Shown in pieces: positions 31,613 to 43,968 of a DNA stretch of 64,000 bases. Source of the DNA: an uncultured Pelagibacteraceae bacterium (GTDB taxonomy: Bacteria; Pseudomonadota; Alphaproteobacteria; Pelagibacterales; Pelagibacteraceae); assembly GCA_902596515.1 (NCBI GenBank), contig CACJUF010000005.1, positions 1-64,000 on the forward strand, given 5' to 3'. Under the pieces are notes generated by a model. The model was not told the DNA's origin and searched no databases. It saw nothing but the letters and a program-made list of their open reading frames with translations. The translations under genes and the position numbers were made by a program. Each line of letters begins with the position of its first letter. Position 1 is the stretch's first letter.

Positions 31613-31877
31613 CCCCTCTAGCTTTTTTAAGCATTTTTATTTCATTTTCAATCATTTGAAATTTATGTCGATCACACAAATAGCTAAAATACTTCAAGGT
31701 ATTATATGGAAGAAAATAAAGTTTTAAAATTAGGTTAAGAATAAACTTATCTTTGTAAAATTCTTTTTTTGCCTGCATTTGAAGTTCTTTATGAGTTAAT
31801 AGCCACCCAAGGTAATTTTTCCATTCATATCTGTTTTCTAATCTTTCTTTAATTATTTCATCAAGATTATTTTTCAT
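31599..31877 (-). CDS. Hypothetical protein (probable start MKNNLDEII)
   Basis: Internal Met at 31877 overlaps the stop of the Cas4-like gene (ORF track extends to 31952); translational coupling. Confidence 0.55.
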   Translation of the reverse strand: MKNNLDEIIKERLENRYEWKNYLGWLLTHKELQMQAKKEFYKDKFILNLILKLYFLPYNTLKYFSYLCDRHKFQMIENEIKMLKKARGDEDE

Positions 31878-32646
31878 TAGCCATCCTTCCTGCGGACACA
31901 AAATAATTACAAGTTTCACATGTTCCATTAGGTTCAGGTGGTTTATTGTCATGGAGAATATCTAAATATTTTGTGAGAACTTTCATAAAGTTTTTAAGAT
32001 CATATTTTACCTCAGTAAATTTAAATGAAAAATCTATAGAAATATTATCTGTATTTTTTAGTTCTTCAGGATAGATAAATACAAGACCTAATAAACTTGT
32101 TTTATTTATAGTAATTTTCTTTATCTTTTTTAAAGTTTCCTCAACACTTTTTTTAATTGAATCAGGTTTTTTAGCCCTACTATGTTCAGCTAAAAATTTT
32201 TCATCAGTTTCTAAATTTGAATATAATAGACTGTACCCATGAAGTTGAGGTTCGTACTCATTAATTTTTTTCTCTAGATCCTTGCTAAAATCTTTACCAT
32301 TTTTTTCTTTAAACTTAGATGTCTTATAATCAATAATACCCGAGGTTCCATCCTCGAATTTAATAATAGCATCTCCTTTTCCTTTAATTCTAAAAGGTCT
32401 ATTTTTATCATCTTTTAAAACTTTAGAAAAAAATGAAATATTAAATGGATCAATTGTTTCACCTCCTTTAATATTTTTATCGATTTTTTTTACATCTCCC
32501 AAAAAATATTCTTTTTCCATGCTGTCTAATGTTTGTGTCACTCCAGCAGAAATCATTTTAGGATAAAGATTAAAGTTTTTACCTACGTAAGCACAATGAT
32601 CACACACATATGATAATTCGCTCGGGCTAATGATGTAAGTTTTCAT
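31867..32646 (-). CDS. PD-(D/E)XK nuclease-like protein with Cas4/AddB-like cysteines
   Basis: IKGKGDAIIKFEDGTSGIIDYKTSK (D...D-Y-K nuclease core), N-terminal CDHC and C-terminal GTCETCNYF. Confidence 0.75.
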   Translation of the reverse strand: MKTYIISPSELSYVCDHCAYVGKNFNLYPKMISAGVTQTLDSMEKEYFLGDVKKIDKNIKGGETIDPFNISFFSKVLKDDKNRPFRIKGKGDAIIKFEDGTSGIIDYKTSKFKEKNGKDFSKDLEKKINEYEPQLHGYSLLYSNLETDEKFLAEHSRAKKPDSIKKSVEETLKKIKKITINKTSLLGLVFIYPEELKNTDNISIDFSFKFTEVKYDLKNFMKVLTKYLDILHDNKPPEPNGTCETCNYFVSAGRMANEK

Positions 32647-33407: not shown

Positions 33408-33746
33408 ATGCAGCAATTAGAACTGTTTGATTACAGAAAAGATTATCTTTTTGATAATAAAAATCAGGTTGCTCACTGGTACGATATCCTTAAAGAAACT
33501 GAAGACACCATTAGTTATGCAGAACACATAGATCCTAATAAAGGCTATGCAATAGCAGCTATGGAATATGAGGAATATGTGGATGTGAAAAAAGATAGGT
33601 TGAAAGGATTGACCTATGATCAAATTCTCACATATTTAAAAAGTGCAAAAAAAGAAGACAGACTTAAAAAATATAAAGCACTATTGAAATTTAGAAACAT
33701 TCCTTTTGAAGCTGATCTTTTTACCTGGCATAATTCAGATTTATAA
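33408..33746 (+). CDS. Hypothetical protein (112 aa) preceding the GHKL ATPase
   Basis: Intact ORF, co-directional with the following three genes. Confidence 0.6.
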   Translation: MQQLELFDYRKDYLFDNKNQVAHWYDILKETEDTISYAEHIDPNKGYAIAAMEYEEYVDVKKDRLKGLTYDQILTYLKSAKKEDRLKKYKALLKFRNIPFEADLFTWHNSDL

Positions 33747-33800: not shown

Positions 33801-35351
33801 ATGTCAAATAATACGATTAATATTAGACCTGGAGTAGGATATTTATCAATATTATCAGCCATCAATTATACTCCTTGGCATGCAACAGCAGAGTTTGTAG
33901 ACAATTCTATTCAAAGTTACATAGACAACAAACCTAAACTTAGAAGACTTCACAGTAATTATAAACTTAAAATTGATATTACTGTCAACGCAGCAACAAT
34001 TGAAATAAAAGATAACGCCGTAGGAATTGGTGCAGAAAATTATGAGAGAGCCTTCCAAGCAGCAATGCGACCCAAAAAACAAACAGGTTTATCAGAATTT
34101 GGAATGGGTATGAAAACAGCTGCTTGTTGGTTTTCTAATCTTTGGACTGTAAAATCAAAAGCAGTTGGTGAAGATTTTGCAACAGAAGCAAAATTTGACA
34201 TAGAAAAAATCACTAAAGAGAAGAATGACAGATTGTCTTACAAAACTTCAAAGATGAATAAAAATTCTCATTATACAATTGTTACTCTCAAAGATCTTAA
34301 CCATAATCCAAGAGGAAAAAGTGTAGAGAGAATTAAAGATCATTTAGCCTCAATGTATAGAGCTTTCATTAATAAAGATGAAATTGAAATTAGATACAAT
34401 GGTTCATCACTAAAATACAAAGAACCAAAAATTTTAAAAGCAGTAGATATGAGAGATGTGGACGATGAGGTAATCAATCCTAAAAAAAAGATTTGGAAGA
34501 AAAAATTTGATTTCACATTCCAATGTGGGAATAAAAAACGCAAAGTCCATGGTAAAATAGGAATAAGGGAAACTATGGATGGAAAAAGAGCTGGGTTTGC
34601 TGTTTTTAGAAGAGATAGATTAATATTTGGCAGTGATGATCAACCATGGAGACCTTTGAAAATTGTAAGGCAAGAAGGTTCTGCTATTGCAAAAAGATTA
34701 TATGGAGAGTTGTATTTTGATGATGAAATGGAAGTTACTCACACAAAAGATAATTTGAATTGGTCAGAGTCAGATCAAGAATCTTTTCTTAATAAATTAA
34801 AATCTGTAATTAATTCAGATGAATTACCTATAATAAGTCAGGCCGATAGATTCAAAAAAAATGATCCAACAAATGAAAATTCTAAAGCTCAAGAAAAAGC
34901 TACTGAGTCTGCTGTCGAAAAGATAAGCAAAGCTATGAGAGCCTTAGAAGATGTTGAGGCCCCTAAAAGTGTAGAGATACCTAAGGAACTTCCAAAAACA
35001 AAAAGTAAACCTATAGTGAAAAGAAAAAAAATTCACTTTGAGGATCAAATTTGGACAGTTTATATAAAACTTAACAGAGATAAAGAAACTCATAATCAAG
35101 ATTGGTTACAGATAAGCCTTGATCCAAAGAGTAGAAAAAATAAAACTATCGAAATACAAATTATGATGAACAAGGGTTACACATCTCAATATTTTGGAGA
35201 TCAAGAGCATGAGTTAGAAGGATTGGAGTTATTAGCTTCTTATATAGCTTTAGCTGAAATAATCAGTAAAGAAAGAGGAGAAAGAAATACTCACCTAACA
35301 AGGTATTATATTAATAAGATTATTGATAGTGTGCCTCCAACAATAGATTAA
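33801..35351 (+). CDS. MORC/MutL/HSP90-like GHKL ATPase
   Basis: N-box EFVDNSIQ, G1 IKDNAVGIG, G2 GLSEFGMGMKTA. Confidence 0.85.
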   Translation: MSNNTINIRPGVGYLSILSAINYTPWHATAEFVDNSIQSYIDNKPKLRRLHSNYKLKIDITVNAATIEIKDNAVGIGAENYERAFQAAMRPKKQTGLSEFGMGMKTAACWFSNLWTVKSKAVGEDFATEAKFDIEKITKEKNDRLSYKTSKMNKNSHYTIVTLKDLNHNPRGKSVERIKDHLASMYRAFINKDEIEIRYNGSSLKYKEPKILKAVDMRDVDDEVINPKKKIWKKKFDFTFQCGNKKRKVHGKIGIRETMDGKRAGFAVFRRDRLIFGSDDQPWRPLKIVRQEGSAIAKRLYGELYFDDEMEVTHTKDNLNWSESDQESFLNKLKSVINSDELPIISQADRFKKNDPTNENSKAQEKATESAVEKISKAMRALEDVEAPKSVEIPKELPKTKSKPIVKRKKIHFEDQIWTVYIKLNRDKETHNQDWLQISLDPKSRKNKTIEIQIMMNKGYTSQYFGDQEHELEGLELLASYIALAEIISKERGERNTHLTRYYINKIIDSVPPTID

Positions 35352-35354
35352 TCT

Positions 35355-37898
35355 ATGAGTGAAAAAACTGTTATTTTGGAAACTAATTCGAAAAGTAAAA
35401 AAAAAAATATAACATGGCAACCAATCCGAAATGGAAAAACTTTTTCAAAATATTTAAATCTAAACAATAAATTGGAGGAAATTGATAGAAAGAATCTTAC
35501 AGACGACTCTGTAAATCTAATTGGGCAAACTATAAATCCTAGCATAATTGATAAAGTAGGAATGAATTCAACAGGTTTATGTTTTGGTCAAATTCAAAGT
35601 GGTAAAACAACTTCTATGGAAGCAATTAGTGCTTTGGCCCATGACAATAAATTCAAAATAATCATTTTATTAACTGGTAATGTAACTCCATTAGCTAGAC
35701 AGAATACTTCAAGAGTTGATCAAGCATTACAAGGAAGAGAATGGCTGGTAATAAAGAATCTACCAAAACCTGCAGCTTGGAATAAATCTGAAAATATTAA
35801 AGAAATAAGATCGGTATTAAATTCGTATACCAGTAAAAATAAGGTAATAGCTGAAACATTTAATAAAACAATATTGATATTATCAATGAAAAATCCCTCA
35901 AAAATAAATAGGGTCACAAATTTATTTTTAGAGGCATCTTCTTGGGATAACTCGTTATATAACAAGATTCCAACCATCATAATTGATGATGAGGCAGATC
36001 ACCATTCATTAAATTCCAAAGCTAGTAAAAATACTGCTGAGGACAAAGAGGATGAAGAACTTTATAAAGTTGAAGAAGGAGAAACTTGGGAAACTTTAGC
36101 TGAAAAATTTGAAAAAAGTGTTCGAGAACTAAGGGAAATAAATCCTGATTATAAAGAGGATGAAGAATTAACATTAGGTGATTTAATTAATACAGAATAC
36201 GAAGATATTAGAACCCATAGGGCTATTAAAGATTTAAGATCAGTATTTAATTTTCATTCTTTTCTAGGATATACAGCTACACCAAATGCAAATTTGCTAA
36301 CTAATACACTAAATTTTCTTTCACCAAATTTCAGCCAAATCTTGGAGCCAGGAAGTCAATATACAGGGCTTGAATATTTTTTCGGTGAACAAAAAAGTAT
36401 TGATAGATTTATTAGTTCCATGGGAAGCCAAAAAAAGATAAAAGAGTTAGAGGACTCAGACGAGAGGCCAAAGGCTTTGGAAAATGCTTTTATGCATTTT
36501 GTTGTTAGCGTTGCATGTGGATATATTTCAGGACATTCCTCAGGAGAAAATAATAGATCCATGTTCATTCATCCAGATAGACTTCATGAGTCTCACGATC
36601 AGTACATAAGATGGATTAACGGTCTAAAAATGAAATGGGATGGAGAACTTAACGCAGATAAAAATTCAGAAGAATATAAAGATCTTATCCAATATATTAA
36701 AAAAACTCTCGAAGGTATAAGAAATAATTCAGATGACAAAAATGAGGTACCAGAATTTACAGATGAATTTATTGATTTTTTTAAACAATCTTTAAATGTA
36801 ATTAATCCAATAAGATTTAATTCGAAAGAAAGTAGTATTGAGGCTCCAGAGTGGGATAGAAAATATCCACACTTATTAGTTGGTGGTGAAGGCTTAAACA
36901 GAGGTTTCACTGTTGAGGGTATTACAGTAAGTTATTTAAGCCGAGCAGTTGGAACAAGACAACAAGATACTCTTTTGCAAAGAGCACGTTTTTTTGGGTA
37001 TCATAAAAAAAATAGAAATTTTATTAAAATTTTTTTAACTGATGAATTATCTGATTTTTTTAGAGATACATTTCATAGTGATAGAGAATTGAGAATGTCC
37101 TTAAAAAGACATTCAGAAAATCCAGAAAATAATCTTAAAGATTGGCCAAGAGTATGGATAAGCAGAAACATTGGTAATTATAAATTAACAAGACCCGGTA
37201 TAAACAATAGTTGGTCTATTGTAAGTAGAAATGTTCCCCCTCCTCCAGCAAGACAAGCTTTTGCAGCAAAAATGAGAACAGTGGACTTAGATACAAACAG
37301 AGAAATTTATAGAATTCTTAGATCAAAATATGACAATAATTTAAAAAAAATCAGTTCGATAGAGCCTGTAACAAATAACAATCCATGGGCAAAAAAGGAT
37401 GAAGCTTTAATTGTAGAAAATGTAACTCTTAAATCTATATATGAAGATGTTATATCTAAAATAAAGCATGAGGCTAGAGATATAAGACCTTTTTTCATAG
37501 CCGAACAAATTATTTCTTATTATTTGAATTCAGGAAAAGATGATCTCAATTGCCCAATAATTTTTATGGATGGTAGAAATTTCCGATCACCGGATAAAAA
37601 AGATCTAGACAGAATACAAACTGCTGGGGGTCGTGATACTAAATTAAAAAACAATCCAAATGATAAAAGCTTATTTCCAGGTGATAGACTTGTGCATTAT
37701 GAATACTTGTTTGGTCAATCTAATAATGAAAGGGCTAATTATTATCCTACCTTACAAATTTATAATCTTAAAATTTATCCCAAACCGAAGCAAGAAGGAA
37801 AACCATTAGAAAATGTACCTTATTTTAATTTTTATATGCCAAATGAATGTTGGACTGATATAATTACAGGAATTAAGAAAAGTGATATTCCTAGATAA
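35355..37898 (+). CDS. Z1-domain SF2-like ATPase (R-M associated) with internal LysM-like insert
   Basis: Walker A GQIQSGKTTS, Walker B TIIIDDEADHH, GYTATPNANLL, GGEGLNRGFTVEG, DTLLQRARFFGY. Confidence 0.85.
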   Translation: MSEKTVILETNSKSKKKNITWQPIRNGKTFSKYLNLNNKLEEIDRKNLTDDSVNLIGQTINPSIIDKVGMNSTGLCFGQIQSGKTTSMEAISALAHDNKFKIIILLTGNVTPLARQNTSRVDQALQGREWLVIKNLPKPAAWNKSENIKEIRSVLNSYTSKNKVIAETFNKTILILSMKNPSKINRVTNLFLEASSWDNSLYNKIPTIIIDDEADHHSLNSKASKNTAEDKEDEELYKVEEGETWETLAEKFEKSVRELREINPDYKEDEELTLGDLINTEYEDIRTHRAIKDLRSVFNFHSFLGYTATPNANLLTNTLNFLSPNFSQILEPGSQYTGLEYFFGEQKSIDRFISSMGSQKKIKELEDSDERPKALENAFMHFVVSVACGYISGHSSGENNRSMFIHPDRLHESHDQYIRWINGLKMKWDGELNADKNSEEYKDLIQYIKKTLEGIRNNSDDKNEVPEFTDEFIDFFKQSLNVINPIRFNSKESSIEAPEWDRKYPHLLVGGEGLNRGFTVEGITVSYLSRAVGTRQQDTLLQRARFFGYHKKNRNFIKIFLTDELSDFFRDTFHSDRELRMSLKRHSENPENNLKDWPRVWISRNIGNYKLTRPGINNSWSIVSRNVPPPPARQAFAAKMRTVDLDTNREIYRILRSKYDNNLKKISSIEPVTNNNPWAKKDEALIVENVTLKSIYEDVISKIKHEARDIRPFFIAEQIISYYLNSGKDDLNCPIIFMDGRNFRSPDKKDLDRIQTAGGRDTKLKNNPNDKSLFPGDRLVHYEYLFGQSNNERANYYPTLQIYNLKIYPKPKQEGKPLENVPYFNFYMPNECWTDIITGIKKSDIPR
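36058..36205 (+). other. LysM-like segment within the Z1 ATPase
   Basis: YKVEEGETWETLAEKFEKSVRELREINPDYKEDEELTLGDLINTE vs LysM pattern Y-x-V-x-x-G-[DE]-T-[LW]-x-x-[IL]-A-x-K-F-x-x-S-V-x-x-L-x-x-x-N-P. Confidence 0.6.
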
Positions 37899-38853
37899 AA
37901 TAACGAAATTAAAACCACCGATTTCTAAAGATCTTAATACATATTCTGTAAAAGAAATAAAAAAAAATTCAAATCATTTAATTGGAATTAATTTTAACAG
38001 AGAAATTGCTTTATTATTTGATACAACAAAACCATACGCAAAAGGTGATGCGCTTGAATATATTCAATTAGTACACAATCAAAAGTGCATAGTAAAAGAG
38101 GACAAAAAAGAAAAAAATAAGAATTACAGTGTACTCAAATGTAGTATTGATAATCAAAAGTTAAAAGAACTTTTTTTAAAACTTTTAGAGAATATAATCT
38201 TAGAAATTCCAGATAAAATTTCTCAAAAAGATATAACGGATTTAACAAGAGATATTTTTGATTTATTCGAAAAGATTTCTAAGCCATCAAGAGAAACGCT
38301 TATTGGCTTATGGGGAGAACTGTTTGTAATTAATTCCTCTAAAAATGCTGACGTTTTAATTCAAGCATGGCACCCTGAGACTACAGACAAATTTGATTTT
38401 TTTAATCAAAATCAAGCTTTGGAAATCAAAACAACTACCTCAAATGATAGAATTCATAATTTTTCTTATGAACAATTATACGTAGGAAATGAAAAATTAC
38501 TTATATGCTCCATAATGTTGAGACAAAACCGAGATGGTAAATCACTGGATGATTTAAGAAATGAGATTTTGGGTCGAATAAAGAATAAAAATTTAAAAGA
38601 TCAATTTGAGTTAGTTTATTATAAAACAATCGGAGAAATCTCAGAAGAAGATATCAATGAATATAAATTTGATTATTCTTATGCTGAGGAAAATATTAGA
38701 TATTTTGATCTAATTAATGTTCCAAGACTAAAAGAAAAACCAATGGCAGGTGTAAAAAAGATTAAATTTCAATCAGATCTCACTGGTATAAAGTCTGTAA
38801 ATCAATTTGATGAGGACTCCTTCTATTCAAATTTATTTCTCGAAGTTAATTAA
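37882..38853 (+). CDS. DUF4420-like PD-(D/E)XK nuclease
   Basis: GLWGELFVI...TTDKFDFFNQNQALEIKTTTS (E, D, ExK core); overlaps Z1 gene. Confidence 0.75.
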   Translation: MIFLDKITKLKPPISKDLNTYSVKEIKKNSNHLIGINFNREIALLFDTTKPYAKGDALEYIQLVHNQKCIVKEDKKEKNKNYSVLKCSIDNQKLKELFLKLLENIILEIPDKISQKDITDLTRDIFDLFEKISKPSRETLIGLWGELFVINSSKNADVLIQAWHPETTDKFDFFNQNQALEIKTTTSNDRIHNFSYEQLYVGNEKLLICSIMLRQNRDGKSLDDLRNEILGRIKNKNLKDQFELVYYKTIGEISEEDINEYKFDYSYAEENIRYFDLINVPRLKEKPMAGVKKIKFQSDLTGIKSVNQFDEDSFYSNLFLEVN

Positions 38854-39871
38854 AAAACTGCTTTTTAATTTCTCTTGATATAACTTTAGCTAATAAAGGT
38901 GGCACTGCATTTCCTATTAATCTCCATTGATCTCTAAAATCACCAACTAATTTATAATTATCTGGAAAAGTTTGAATTCTTTTTATCTCGTTAATTCTTA
39001 AAAATCTATTTCTCCAATGGAATGGGCCCATGTTATTTGAAAAGCTAGCTTGAATAGTCCAAGAAGGTTCTTTTGGAGAAAGCTTTAATAAGAAAGACCA
39101 ATATCTTGATCGCCATTTAAACTCAGGTTTAGGATGCCCTCTTTCTTTGGTAAAAAAAAGATAATTCTCTCCGGGAGGTATTAATTTAAGTAAATGTTTA
39201 TGCTTTGAACCAGCTAAATTATTTTTGTCTTCGGGTAACTTTGTATCTAAGTCACCAATAGCTACTTTACAATTAACCCATTTTGCTTTCTTAAAAAGTA
39301 AATTATTTTCTTTTACTTTTGAATGAGTTGACTCGGGGAAATCAAATTTCCCTAATTCCTTTAACGTTCCAACACATATAAACCTTTGTCGAATTTGTGG
39401 AACACCATAATCTGCACAATTTATAACTTGATGAGATAAATTATAACCTGCTTTTTTACATTCACTTTCAAAAAAATCTAAAGCTGGTTTATGAGGTTTA
39501 AAAAAGAAACCATGAACATTTTCGAAAAAAAATACTTTTGGTTTTATTATTTTTAAAGCCTTACAAAAATACACTAGAGTATAAGAGTCTTCATCTTCTA
39601 AAGCTCTTTTCTTCTCTTTGATATAAAATCTTGATTTTGAATAGGGAGGACAAGGAGGTCCGCCAACAACAATATCAACCTTACCTTTAAATTTTGAGAA
39701 ATTTATATCTTTGATATCAGAACAAATTACATTTTTTGAAATCTTATTTTTCTTAAGTGTATCACAGGCTATATTCCAATTATCTACAGCTGCATATGTT
39801 TCAAATGAATTACTTTTAAAACCGATATCAATTCCACCTGCCCCAGAAAATAAACTTAAGATTTTATTCAT
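38846..39871 (-). CDS. DNA (cytosine-5) methyltransferase, Dcm type, copy 1
   Basis: LSLFSGAGGIDIGF, VVGGPPCPPYSKSRF, FFENVHGF, GNAVPPLLAKVI. Confidence 0.92.
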   Translation of the reverse strand: MNKILSLFSGAGGIDIGFKSNSFETYAAVDNWNIACDTLKKNKISKNVICSDIKDINFSKFKGKVDIVVGGPPCPPYSKSRFYIKEKKRALEDEDSYTLVYFCKALKIIKPKVFFFENVHGFFFKPHKPALDFFESECKKAGYNLSHQVINCADYGVPQIRQRFICVGTLKELGKFDFPESTHSKVKENNLLFKKAKWVNCKVAIGDLDTKLPEDKNNLAGSKHKHLLKLIPPGENYLFFTKERGHPKPEFKWRSRYWSFLLKLSPKEPSWTIQASFSNNMGPFHWRNRFLRINEIKRIQTFPDNYKLVGDFRDQWRLIGNAVPPLLAKVISREIKKQFFN

Positions 39872-39904
39872 TTACTTATAACAATTTAATATTACAATTA
39901 GACT

Positions 39905-40420
39905 ATGTTGGCTAGCTCGATTTTTGATTACTTAAAAAATAAAAAATCTATATTAAAGGTTGAAAAAAACTCTAACCCATTCAAATTTAGCTATAAACAC
40001 AATAAATTTTCTTTATGTCTCAAAAATATTGGTTTTGCCTACAGAACAAATTTAGATGAATACAGAGTTCAAATAGGGGAAAAATTTAGAGAACAATTAA
40101 AAAGTTATCATCTTCAGGGTTATTGGGCTTTAATTTTAGGTTACCATAAAAAATCAAATACATATGTTGCTTGGGACAATAAACTTTTATTTAGCTCTAA
40201 AGCAAAAAATAGATCACTTTATACAAGATCAAGCATTTGTGATAGGACTGCAGAATCTTGTTTTGAGCACTATAGATATAAAGATAATCTAATTAAAGAG
40301 GAGACTGTCTCAATTAATTTTAAAGGCAAACATCTTGGACTGTACTTAGATCAAATCAAAACTTTAAATATTCATGAGTATAAAAGTTTTATAAATTTTT
40401 ACAGGAACTTAGATATTTGA
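39905..40420 (+). CDS. Small R-M-associated protein of unknown function (171 aa)
   Basis: Intact ORF between two methyltransferases; RVQIGEKFRE...GYWALILGYHKKSNTYVAWDNKLLF. Confidence 0.65.
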   Translation: MLASSIFDYLKNKKSILKVEKNSNPFKFSYKHNKFSLCLKNIGFAYRTNLDEYRVQIGEKFREQLKSYHLQGYWALILGYHKKSNTYVAWDNKLLFSSKAKNRSLYTRSSICDRTAESCFEHYRYKDNLIKEETVSINFKGKHLGLYLDQIKTLNIHEYKSFINFYRNLDI

Positions 40421-41470
40421 AACTAAATATTTTACCATTGCCTTACCCATCAATGGAGGTACTGCATTACCTATCTGTCTTTGTATAGATCTTCTATTAC
40501 CAAAAAATTTATAATTTTTAGGAAAAGTTTGTATAGCTGCTATCTCAGGAACTCTCAGTCTTCTATTAGTCCAGTGGAAAGGGCCAACCCAAGGACCAGG
40601 TTGCGCAGCTATTGTCCAAGATGGAAGATCTGCTTTTAACTTTAATAAGAAATTCCAAAATCTTGTATTTTTTTTAAAATTTGATTTTTTACCATCACAT
40701 AATGCAAGGTAGTTTTCACCAGGTTTTACCTTTTTTAATTCTTTATAATAAGTTCCAAGATTTGTTTTTTCATGCTCTTCCTCATAAATATCTTGATCAA
40801 ATTCTTCAATATGTTTACCGACTGTTTCGTAAGGTTTTAAGTTTTTATTAAATAAGTCTGGTTTATTAGGATCATAGTGAGTTTTTTGAGGCTCTTCATT
40901 ATTGAATTCTTTTTTGGAACCCATAAAAAAAACTCTTTTTCTTTTTTGAGGAACACCATAGTCCAAAGCATTGGCTTTAACCATTTTAAAATTATAATTA
41001 AATTTTTTTGTTTTTCTTAAAATAGTCTCTACTGCTTTTTTATTTGTAGGATGTAAAATACTTTCAACATTTTCAATCAAAAAGCCATCAGGATTTATTT
41101 CATCAATAAATTTGAAAAAATCATCAATACAATTTCTTGGATCCTTAGTAATTTTTCTATTTTCATTGGTTATCCAGTAACCATTTTTGGAAAAAGGCTG
41201 GCAAGGTGGACCACCTATAATTATAGTCTTGTTGCCATTTAAATATTTTTCTATTTCTTTAATTTTTGTCTTTTTAATATCATCTTTGATTATTTTTGTT
41301 TCTTTGAATTCTGAATTTAATTCGAGTGTTCTCACAGAATCTTCATCATTATCTATCGATACTTTCAATTTGATATTATTTTGTTTAGCGCCTATATCTA
41401 AACCTCCTGCACCAGAAAATAAACTAATAGCTTGTATATTTGTATTTTTCATAATGAGTCGTTTTATCAT
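40409..41470 (-). CDS. DNA (cytosine-5) methyltransferase, Dcm type, copy 2
   Basis: ISLFSGAGGLDIGA, IIGGPPCQPFSKNGYW, LIENVESI, RQIGNAVPPLMGKAM. Confidence 0.93.
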   Translation of the reverse strand: MIKRLIMKNTNIQAISLFSGAGGLDIGAKQNNIKLKVSIDNDEDSVRTLELNSEFKETKIIKDDIKKTKIKEIEKYLNGNKTIIIGGPPCQPFSKNGYWITNENRKITKDPRNCIDDFFKFIDEINPDGFLIENVESILHPTNKKAVETILRKTKKFNYNFKMVKANALDYGVPQKRKRVFFMGSKKEFNNEEPQKTHYDPNKPDLFNKNLKPYETVGKHIEEFDQDIYEEEHEKTNLGTYYKELKKVKPGENYLALCDGKKSNFKKNTRFWNFLLKLKADLPSWTIAAQPGPWVGPFHWTNRRLRVPEIAAIQTFPKNYKFFGNRRSIQRQIGNAVPPLMGKAMVKYLVSNI

Positions 41471-41890: not shown

Positions 41891-42976
41891 ATGAAAAAAA
41901 ATATTTTTTTTTTACTACCAGTATTCACCTACGGAGCTGGCCAATCTATTAAGAGAATTATATTAGATCTCAACCATAAAAAGTATAATAAAAACATAAT
42001 TTGTTTAGGAAAATGTCAGTTTAAAAAAGAACTTTTAAAGAAAAAAGTAAAAGTTTATGAATTAAATCATAAAAAATTATTATTTGCTATTACTGATATA
42101 AGAAAAATTTTAGAAAGTAATAAAATCAATAAAAAAATACTAATATCAAATATTCATTACACTAATGTTTTAAGTCTGTTATTTTTTTCTAAAATTAAAG
42201 AATTAAAAATTATTGTAACAGAAAGAACTGCGATAAGAGAATTAGATATTTATTTTGGTTTAATAGATTTTTTTAAAAAGAAGATAATAAAATTATTAGT
42301 TAAAATCTTATATAAAAAAGCTGACGCTATAATTACTAACTCTACAAAATCATCAAAAGATTTAGCTAAAATTGTAAAATTGAAAATTAACACAATATTT
42401 TCCCCATCTTATATTCCAAGTAATTTTAAAGTGAGAAAAAATAGAAATAGAAATAAAATAATAATCGTAGTATCCAGACTTTCTCAGGAAAAAAATATAA
42501 TATATATATTAAAGGCAATAAATTTAATCAAAGATAAAAAATTTATTTTAAAAATAATTGGTGACGGGGAACAAAAAAAAGAGTTGGTAAATTTTGTATA
42601 CAGAAATCAATTATCAAAAAAAGTAAAATTTTTGGATTATAAAAAAAATGTAAAAAAATTTTTTTTAGAGTCTGATCTCTTTATTAATAGCTCATTTTTT
42701 GAAGGTTTTCCTAATGCAGTTGTGGAATCCTTAAAGTATAATGTTCCTGTGATTTGTTCAAAAAGCCATGGAGGTATATTTGATATTTTAAAAAATAATA
42801 GATATGGATATTTATTTGATTTACATAAAATTGAAAATTTATCATCCATAATCTTAAAATTTTTAAATAATAGCAGTAATTTTTTAAAAAAAACTAAAAA
42901 TGCTCAAAATAATTTAAAACGATTTTCAATTAAAAAATCTGTTTTAGATTACGAAAAATTATTAGATAAACTATAA
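41891..42976 (+). CDS. Glycosyltransferase family 4/group 1
   Basis: VVSRLSQEKNI, NSSFFEGFPNAVVESLKYNVPVICS. Confidence 0.88.
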   Translation: MKKNIFFLLPVFTYGAGQSIKRIILDLNHKKYNKNIICLGKCQFKKELLKKKVKVYELNHKKLLFAITDIRKILESNKINKKILISNIHYTNVLSLLFFSKIKELKIIVTERTAIRELDIYFGLIDFFKKKIIKLLVKILYKKADAIITNSTKSSKDLAKIVKLKINTIFSPSYIPSNFKVRKNRNRNKIIIVVSRLSQEKNIIYILKAINLIKDKKFILKIIGDGEQKKELVNFVYRNQLSKKVKFLDYKKNVKKFFLESDLFINSSFFEGFPNAVVESLKYNVPVICSKSHGGIFDILKNNRYGYLFDLHKIENLSSIILKFLNNSSNFLKKTKNAQNNLKRFSIKKSVLDYEKLLDKL

Positions 42977-43026
42977 CTATTACTTCCAAACAAAGGGTGA
43001 TTTTAACGAATGATCTTTATTGATAC

Positions 43027-43968
43027 TCACTTTTTGAATTTAAAAATTTTCATTATTTTTTTATAAAAATTTAATGTAATTCTTCCAAAAAAAATAAATA
43101 GTATTGCACCTGTGCTCTGTTTGTTATGAAGTCGAATTTTTAACTCATTTATTAATGCAGAAAAAAAGCTAACTTTACTTGAGAAATTACTGTTTCCAAG
43201 ATCCCCAAAAACCTCATCACTCTTGGTTCTTATTCCTTTCATTTTATTTGTAACAATAATTCTATATAGCCAGTCATAATCAGATTGTATTTTATAATTA
43301 ATATTTAAAAGTCCTACTTTCCGAAGTGATGTTGACCTAATATAAAAACCTACTACTGTAGAAGGTATAATATTAAATTGTCTTGATATATCCTCGGGTC
43401 TAAAACCTGCGTAAATTTTATTATCTTTTTTGACAGTTCCACATAAAAAATCCATATCTATATTTTCAAAAATATATTTTTTTAATATATCTAATGAATT
43501 TGGATATAAAATATTCGAGGAGTCTACTATGCCCACAAAATCTCCTCGAGCTAATACAAAACCTTTATTCCAAGCGTCCCAGAGATTTTTATCTTTTTCA
43601 CTTACCCAAATATCAATCTCATCACCGTATTCTTTAAAGATGTTTATAGTTTCGTCCCCAGAATTTCCATCAATAATAATCAATTCAATATTGGAATAAT
43701 TTTGATTTAAAATAGAGTCAATCGATTTTGATATATTTTTTTCTTTAAAATTTGGCATTACAATTGAAATTAAAGGAAACCCATTTAATGAGTTTTTAAA
43801 ATGACCGTTATATCTTGCACCTCCGCAAACTTTCTTATTTTCAGATAATTTTTCTGGAAATAACATACTAGAAAATCTATCATCTTGACGGGCTGATAAA
43901 ATTTTGGCTTCCTTAAAAAAAAATTTAATTTTTCCAAATTTATTAGTCTTTTTTATAATGTTTTCCAC
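43027..43968 (-). CDS. Glycosyltransferase family 2
   Basis: PLISIVMPNFKEKNISKSIDSILNQNYSNIELIIIDGNSGDET. Confidence 0.9.
   Translation of the reverse strand: MENIIKKTNKFGKIKFFFKEAKILSARQDDRFSSMLFPEKLSENKKVCGGARYNGHFKNSLNGFPLISIVMPNFKEKNISKSIDSILNQNYSNIELIIIDGNSGDETINIFKEYGDEIDIWVSEKDKNLWDAWNKGFVLARGDFVGIVDSSNILYPNSLDILKKYIFENIDMDFLCGTVKKDNKIYAGFRPEDISRQFNIIPSTVVGFYIRSTSLRKVGLLNINYKIQSDYDWLYRIIVTNKMKGIRTKSDEVFGDLGNSNFSSKVSFFSALINELKIRLHNKQSTGAILFIFFGRITLNFYKKIMKIFKFKK

What the first reader, a model, noticed from the sequence alone, without database searches (positions are those of the whole stretch)
35355..37898. LysM-like domain embedded in a Z1 ATPase of a restriction-type system
Between Walker B (IIDDEADHH) and the TATP motif, the protein contains YKVEEGETWETLAEKFEKSVRELREINPDYKEDEELTLGDLINTE (about 36063-36200). 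It matches the LysM pattern (YxVxxGxTxxxLAxKFxxSVxxLxxxNP) far better than random acidic linker. LysM normally binds GlcNAc-containing glycans outside the cytoplasm, so one inside a DNA-directed ATPase suggests a different ligand (modified or glycosylated DNA, nucleotide sugar, phage glycan) or a repurposed protein-interaction module. I do not know of a described Z1-LysM architecture, but could not search.
Basis: partly seen in the sequence, partly recalled or inferred. Interest (0 to 1): 0.72.

Follow-up and report, generated by a model that had tools for sequence, protein, structure and literature searches.

The report
Cell-wall-binding fold inside a defence motor
In ocean SAR11 bacteria, the DNA motor protein of a restriction-type defence operon carries a small LysM domain, a fold normally used outside the cell to grip cell-wall sugars, in the middle of its ATP-driven engine; it was probably gained once, is kept across the lineage, and most likely works as a docking part.

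Summary
Residues 237-282 of the Z1 ATPase (36063-36200) form a LysM domain inserted into the first RecA lobe, between Walker B (DDEADHH) and TATP. Evidence: Pfam LysM matches in 13 of 15 insert-bearing relatives (best 3.9e-7) and in 0 of 55 relatives without the insert; the insert profile finds almost only LysM proteins in the PDB (LytE 1.8e-20); AlphaFold2 gives a confident beta-alpha-alpha-beta unit. All insert-bearing proteins are from SAR11 (Pelagibacterales) plus one other alphaproteobacterial genome, and group together (92/76) in a tree built without the insert. Relatives from many other phyla run straight across the empty site. The operon (MORC ATPase, Z1 ATPase, DUF4420 nuclease, cytosine methylases) is the known third type of MORC restriction system (Iyer 2008), in which no LysM was described. 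The protein has no signal peptide or membrane segment, no glycosyltransferase recurs nearby, and the domain is acidic, so sugar or DNA binding is not supported. I favour a protein-docking module on the motor lobe that, in the homologous CglI system, binds the nuclease. Partner and effect are inferred. Verdict: a real, lineage-specific variant of a known system; mechanism open.

The parts
33801..35351 (+). MORC-family GHKL ATPase (HATPase_c_3 + S5 region), 516 aa; carries the MORC signature GFAVFRRDRLI
   Evidence: Pfam HATPase_c_3 5.4e-17, Morc6_S5 0.037; motif read from the translation
35334..35348 (+). C-terminal PPTID tail of the MORC protein; a PP motif near the C-terminus is found in all LysM-bearing systems and in no LysM-free one examined
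   Evidence: one apparent exception there, L001, is the window itself mislabelled; confounded by shared ancestry
35355..37898 (+). Z1-type SF2 ATPase, 847 aa, LysM domain inserted in the first RecA lobe
35586..35609 (+). Walker A, GQIQSGKT (residues 78-85)
   Evidence: invariant in alignments
35979..36002 (+). Walker B / motif II, IIDDEADH (residues 209-216)
   Evidence: invariant core DDExD
36018..36206 (+). whole insert (about residues 222-284): charged linker plus LysM, absent from LysM-free relatives
   Evidence: alignment with the empty site
36063..36200 (+). LysM domain (residues 237-282), beta-alpha-alpha-beta
36273..36284 (+). motif III, TATP (residues 307-310)
   Evidence: invariant
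36477..37121 (+). Z1 domain proper (residues 375-589), including the signature DTLLQRARFFG at 36966-36998
   Evidence: Pfam Z1 5.4e-33; motif DThhQXuRhFG of Iyer 2008
37882..38853 (+). DUF4420 PD-(D/E)XK nuclease candidate, overlaps the end of the Z1 gene by 17 bases
   Evidence: Pfam DUF4420 4e-33; LEIKT motif in the translation
38846..39871 (-). C5-cytosine DNA methyltransferase 1
   Evidence: Pfam DNA_methylase 1.7e-62
39905..40420 (+). MTaX1 (methylase-associated X1) protein, 171 aa
   Evidence: Pfam MTaX1 7.4e-11
40409..41470 (-). C5-cytosine DNA methyltransferase 2
   Evidence: Pfam DNA_methylase 2.9e-56

Best explanation
This is a MORC-Z1 restriction-type defence operon of SAR11 bacteria in which a LysM domain was inserted, probably once, into the first RecA lobe of the Z1 ATPase, between motif II and motif III. 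The system probably works as proposed for its relatives: the methylases mark host DNA, and on unmarked DNA the MORC and Z1 ATPases remodel and translocate DNA and license the nuclease. The LysM part is most likely an intracellular docking module that protrudes from the motor lobe and holds a partner of the complex (MORC, nuclease or a second Z1) in step with the ATPase cycle. Shown here: the domain, its site, its single-clade distribution, purifying selection, operon content. Inferred: defence function, docking, and which partner.
For: LysM identity. Clean insertion: LysM-free relatives run from ...NTRAKQNE straight to ESTTYSRI... where the LysM-bearing ones hold about 55-70 extra residues. 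Insert-bearing proteins group together in a tree built without the insert (92/76; label changes = 1). Other Z1 subfamilies of the same order lack it, so it belongs to the subfamily, not to host composition. Present in all 8 SAR11-order genomes with a close homologue out of 397 searched. Domain under purifying selection: finite dN/dS estimates 0.09-0.35. No signal peptide or membrane segment (best 19-residue hydropathy 1.2). In CglI, the DEAD lobe of the homologous Z1 ATPase binds the nuclease and the Z1 part dimerises (PMC4267653). The insert stays while the nuclease gene changes (DUF4420 in some loci, a large MTaX1 protein in others), with MORC constant; MORC partners of LysM-bearing systems all end in a PP-containing tail, LysM-free ones do not. 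Position 246, in the first cleft loop, is Glu or Asp in 16 of 16, as a fixed salt bridge would need. Solved intracellular LysM units exist, e.g. mitoribosomal uS10m.
Against: No partner was shown. The PP tail and the acidic residue track one clade, so common descent alone could explain them. LysM evolves faster than the motor core (53% versus 81% identity for the closest pair), which a tightly held interface need not do. The model's coordinates could not be inspected, so it is unknown whether the domain protrudes or which surface it shows. Defence activity of this operon is untested.
Confidence: 0.5

Rival explanations
1. The LysM domain is a ligand sensor: it binds GlcNAc-containing material, nucleotide sugar, or sugar-modified phage DNA in the cytoplasm and switches the ATPase on or off.
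For: Cleft-lining positions G242 and T244, equivalent to contact residues G24 and T26 of P60_tth, are kept in 13/16 and 12/16, and V239 (V21) is hydrophobic in 16/16. The insert sits next to motifs II and III, where binding could gate ATP hydrolysis.
Against: Those residues also define the fold. The Gly is lost in 3 of 16, the equivalent of contact Arg32 is mostly acidic (10 of 16) and that of Tyr28 is always acidic. The domain is net negative in all members, -1 to -11. No homologue of the window's two glycosyltransferases lies in the other 16 insert-bearing loci. Known sugar-binding LysM proteins usually carry several copies; here there is one.
Confidence: 0.12
2. The insert is a neutral or purely structural decoration tolerated at a permissive loop, without a specific partner.
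For: Fast evolution relative to the core; only fold-defining residues (L259, N263) are near-invariant; L108 has a degenerate copy that lacks the Gly.
Against: Kept in every homologue of the clade found, at 30-35% overall identity; finite dN/dS estimates are below 0.4; SAR11 genomes are strongly streamlined (established knowledge), which argues against 60 useless codons.
Confidence: 0.2
3. The LysM domain mediates self-association of the Z1 ATPase, for example head-on contact of two translocating complexes.
For: LysM dimerisation occurs in P60_tth, there induced by ligand; in CglI two complexes are proposed to meet before cleavage.
Against: In CglI the Z1 domain itself dimerises, and LysM-free relatives manage without the insert.
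Confidence: 0.13
4. The match is a chance acidic, coiled or disordered linker that only resembles LysM.
For: The window's own copy scores just under the Pfam cut-off in the whole protein.
Against:: independent relatives match, controls do not, and the model is confident.
Confidence: 0.02

Closest known systems
Third type of MORC restriction-modification operon (Iyer, Abhiman and Aravind 2008, PMC2292703)
   Same: MORC GHKL-S5 ATPase with its GhXhhpXXRhl signature, SFII helicase with the DThhQXuRhFG domain (Z1), RE-fold nuclease (DUF4420), cytosine methylases, X1 protein
   Different: the Z1 ATPase carries a LysM insert between motifs II and III; the paper's main text does not mention LysM
CglI / NgoAVII / BceSIV restriction systems (PMC4267653)
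   Same: Z1-type N-protein ATPase working with a nuclease and a cytosine methylase; its DEAD lobe, the lobe that holds the insert here, contacts the nuclease
   Different: no MORC gene and no LysM described; nuclease is PLD-B3, not DUF4420
MZA anti-phage system (MzaABCDE)
   Same: distant similarity of the ATPase to MzaB, the Z1 protein to MzaC and the nuclease to MzaD
   Different: scores far below the equivalog cut-offs (84 versus 1500 bits for MzaC); gene set differs; no LysM
Canonical LysM domains (P60_tth 4uz2/4uz3, LytE 8i2e, Ecp6 4b8v; SAR11 M23-peptidase and multi-LysM proteins)
   Same: fold, motif spacing, profile
   Different: those are exported or cell-wall proteins; this one is an internal insert in a predicted cytoplasmic ATPase, and acidic
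Intracellular LysM modules (kinetoplastid mitoribosomal uS10m; eukaryotic OXR1/NCOA7; bacterial Kbp)
   Same: LysM inside the cell, as part of protein assemblies or with a non-glycan ligand
   Different: none is inserted into a helicase core; known here from PDB rows, abstracts and general knowledge

Membership tests
LysM domain (PF01476) | significant profile match | tested here: met
   13 of 15 relatives match at E<=0.1, best 3.9e-7; window copy 21.8 bits scored alone, over the 20.9 cut-off, 19.7 in the whole protein; controls 0 of 55
LysM domain (PF01476) | beta-alpha-alpha-beta fold | tested here: met
   AlphaFold2 model, mean pLDDT 90.2, E-H-H-E at 237-278; not compared by structure superposition
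LysM domain (PF01476) | binds GlcNAc-containing glycans | not testable with these tools
   contact positions only partly kept
LysM domain (PF01476) | exported / cell-wall location | tested here: not met
   no signal peptide or membrane segment by hydropathy; in a DNA-ATPase operon. This is usual for the family but not required
MORC restriction-modification operon, third type (Iyer 2008) | MORC ATPase with GhXhhpXXRhl motif | tested here: met
   GFAVFRRDRLI in 33801-35351; HATPase_c_3 5.4e-17
MORC restriction-modification operon, third type (Iyer 2008) | SFII helicase with DThhQXuRhFG domain | tested here: met
   DTLLQRARFFG; Z1 5.4e-33; Foldseek best hits are SF2 translocases, FANCM 8.5e-7
MORC restriction-modification operon, third type (Iyer 2008) | adjacent RE-fold nuclease with E-D-ExK | tested here: met
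   DUF4420 4e-33, LEIKT in the translation; catalytic residues not aligned to a solved nuclease
MORC restriction-modification operon, third type (Iyer 2008) | restricts unmethylated foreign DNA | not testable with these tools
   needs an experiment
MZA system | NCBIfam MzaB, MzaC and MzaD equivalog cut-offs | tested here: not met
   22.6/850, 84.2/1500 and 30.5/420 bits
CglI/NgoAVII type | PLD-B3 nuclease partner | tested here: not met
   the neighbouring nuclease is DUF4420

The most novel reading that the evidence does not exclude
The LysM insert is a cytoplasmic sensor that reads a sugar-bearing or cell-wall-derived signal of infection (glycosylated phage DNA, muropeptide or nucleotide sugar) and gates the Z1 motor through motifs II and III, which would be a restriction-type system switched on by a LysM ligand.
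Probability: 0.07. Interest if true: 0.88.

Novelty: new variant of a known kind. Interest (0 to 1): 0.52.

Why it matters
A fold known mainly for gripping cell-wall sugars outside the cell has been placed inside the ATPase lobe of a DNA motor, in some of the most abundant bacteria in the ocean, and kept. It offers a small, deletable module with natural LysM-free relatives as controls, in a family of MORC-linked restriction systems whose internal wiring is unknown and which are related to eukaryotic MORC chromatin ATPases. If the domain docks MORC or the nuclease, it gives a handle on how these ATPases are coupled.

Tried and rejected
Single-protein scan of genome contigs with the window protein found nothing; an alignment query was needed. 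First AlphaFold2 run with 7 sequences was poor overall (mean pLDDT 51), though the insert was its best part; replaced by a 98-sequence run. Tested a tie between the insert and one nuclease type: none, both DUF4420 and MTaX1 types occur. Searched the MORC partners for a matching new domain: none, only a short PP tail. Tested DNA-binding by charge: the domain is acidic, so unlikely. Considered an origin from SAR11's own exported LysM proteins: profile match is strong, but domains of about 45 residues do not resolve the source. Considered MZA membership: rejected on curated cut-offs.

Full report
What is there. The window lies in a SAR11 genome: it shares a genus with genomes whose public records are titled Pelagibacteraceae. 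At 33801-41470 stands a restriction-type operon: MORC ATPase, Z1-type SF2 ATPase, DUF4420 nuclease candidate, two C5-cytosine methylases and an MTaX1 protein. This matches the third operon type of Iyer and colleagues (PMC2292703): the MORC signature GFAVFRRDRLI and the Z1 signature DTLLQRARFFG are both present. PADLOC and NCBIfam know only distant relatives.

The observation. Residues 237-282 of the Z1 protein are a LysM domain. The window copy is borderline for Pfam in the whole protein (19.7 bits, cut-off 20.9, E=8e-4) and above the cut-off when the genome search scores it alone (21.8 bits). The case rests on relatives: the same insert occurs in SAR11 homologues only 30-35% identical overall, of which 13 of 15 match LysM at E<=0.1, the best at 3.9e-7. 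Fifty-five insert-free Z1 proteins give no LysM match. The insert profile against the PDB returns mostly LysM proteins, led by LytE (1.8e-20) and P60_tth (6.1e-14), and aligns to the LysM repeats of SAR11's own exported proteins with 98.4% probability. A 98-sequence AlphaFold2 model has mean pLDDT 90.2 and pTM 0.88; the insert shows strand-helix-helix-strand at pLDDT 82-96 per ten-residue block. Foldseek places the whole protein among SF2 translocases, FANCM first, 8.5e-7.

The site. In LysM-free relatives motif II runs on as DDEGDQAGINTRAKQNE-ESTTYSRILELR...YTATP. In the LysM-bearing proteins a charged linker and the LysM unit stand exactly between the equivalents of NTRAK and ESTT. Both halves of the lobe keep their invariant motifs. 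From general knowledge, XPD-family helicases also carry an accessory (arch) domain in the first RecA lobe; I did not test that comparison.

Distribution. Of the loci examined, every protein with at least 100 residues between motifs II and III belongs to this group: SAR11 plus L108, from an uncultured alphaproteobacterium with a degenerate copy. In a tree built without the insert they form one side of a branch, 92/76 support, one change of label. That supports one gain, with moderate strength; L108 and L175 are long branches. Other Z1 subfamilies in the same order lack the insert. Elsewhere in the class only the stretch after the insert matches. Of 397 order-level genomes, 8 (the window's included) have a close homologue, and all 8 carry the insert. 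Only the best 80 of 391 relatives in genome contigs were kept, so an independent insertion elsewhere could have been missed.

Constraint. For the pairs where it could be estimated, dN/dS in the LysM core is about 0.09-0.35; synonymous changes are often near saturation and the core is short, so these are rough, but they speak against neutral drift. Identity in the core is lower than in the motor (53% against 81% between the window and L170).

What it does. The protein has no signal peptide or membrane segment by hydropathy and sits in a DNA operon, so the domain should be cytoplasmic. Sugar contacts in P60_tth use the two cleft loops (PMC4356369). Here the first loop is largely kept (G242 13/16, T244 12/16), but these residues also shape the fold; the position of contact Arg32 is mostly acidic and position 246, where P60_tth has Tyr28, is Glu or Asp in all 16. 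The core is acidic in every member (-1 to -11), while canonical SAR11 LysM repeats range from -7 to +6. Homologues of the window's glycosyltransferases are absent from the other insert-bearing loci. Neither sugar nor DNA binding is therefore favoured, though neither is excluded.

The best-supported reading is docking. In CglI the DEAD lobe of the Z1 protein binds the nuclease, and the Z1 part dimerises (PMC4267653); the insert stands in that lobe. It persists while the nuclease gene switches between DUF4420 and a large MTaX1 protein, with MORC constant. MORC partners in LysM-bearing systems all end in a PP-containing tail (14 of 14 in the checked set; 0 of 15 LysM-free). Because all LysM-bearing systems are one clade, this is a lead, not proof. 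I give docking in general 0.5, a ligand sensor 0.12, self-association 0.13, and a structural or neutral insert 0.2.

Novelty. The operon is known. A LysM insert in its Z1 ATPase was not found in the papers searched; domain-architecture databases could not be queried, so absence of a description is not certain. I file it as a new variant of a known kind.

Noticed in passing
window 33408-33746 (+) and 31867-32646 (-): A 112-aa ORF of unknown function and a PD-(D/E)XK nuclease-like gene upstream recur near other LysM-bearing operons (L061, L064, L074, L172; the ORF also in L067 and L122) at varying positions, possibly parts of a shared variable island.
   Followed up: partly
window 35334-35348; other MORC genes in loci L061-L175: MORC proteins paired with LysM-bearing Z1 ATPases all end in a PP-containing tail; those paired with LysM-free Z1 do not.
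   Followed up: partly
L063-L067, L122, L173, L174, L038: In one SAR11 subgroup DUF4420 was not detected and a roughly 500-aa protein with an N-terminal MTaX1 domain follows, perhaps a different nuclease; its C-terminal part has no Pfam match.
   Followed up: partly
window 38846-41470: Two C5-cytosine methylase genes on the minus strand flank the MTaX1 gene, suggesting an asymmetric recognition site that needs two methylases.
   Followed up: no
window 41891-43968: Glycosyltransferase genes follow the operon, as in a surface-polysaccharide variable region; they do not recur near other LysM-bearing operons.
   Followed up: partly
L177-L182 and L181-L204: Ordinary SAR11 LysM domains lie in exported-looking three-LysM proteins of 400-427 aa and in M23-peptidase-like proteins; most SAR11 genomes sampled have no LysM hit at E<=0.001 (31 of 197 do).
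   Followed up: partly
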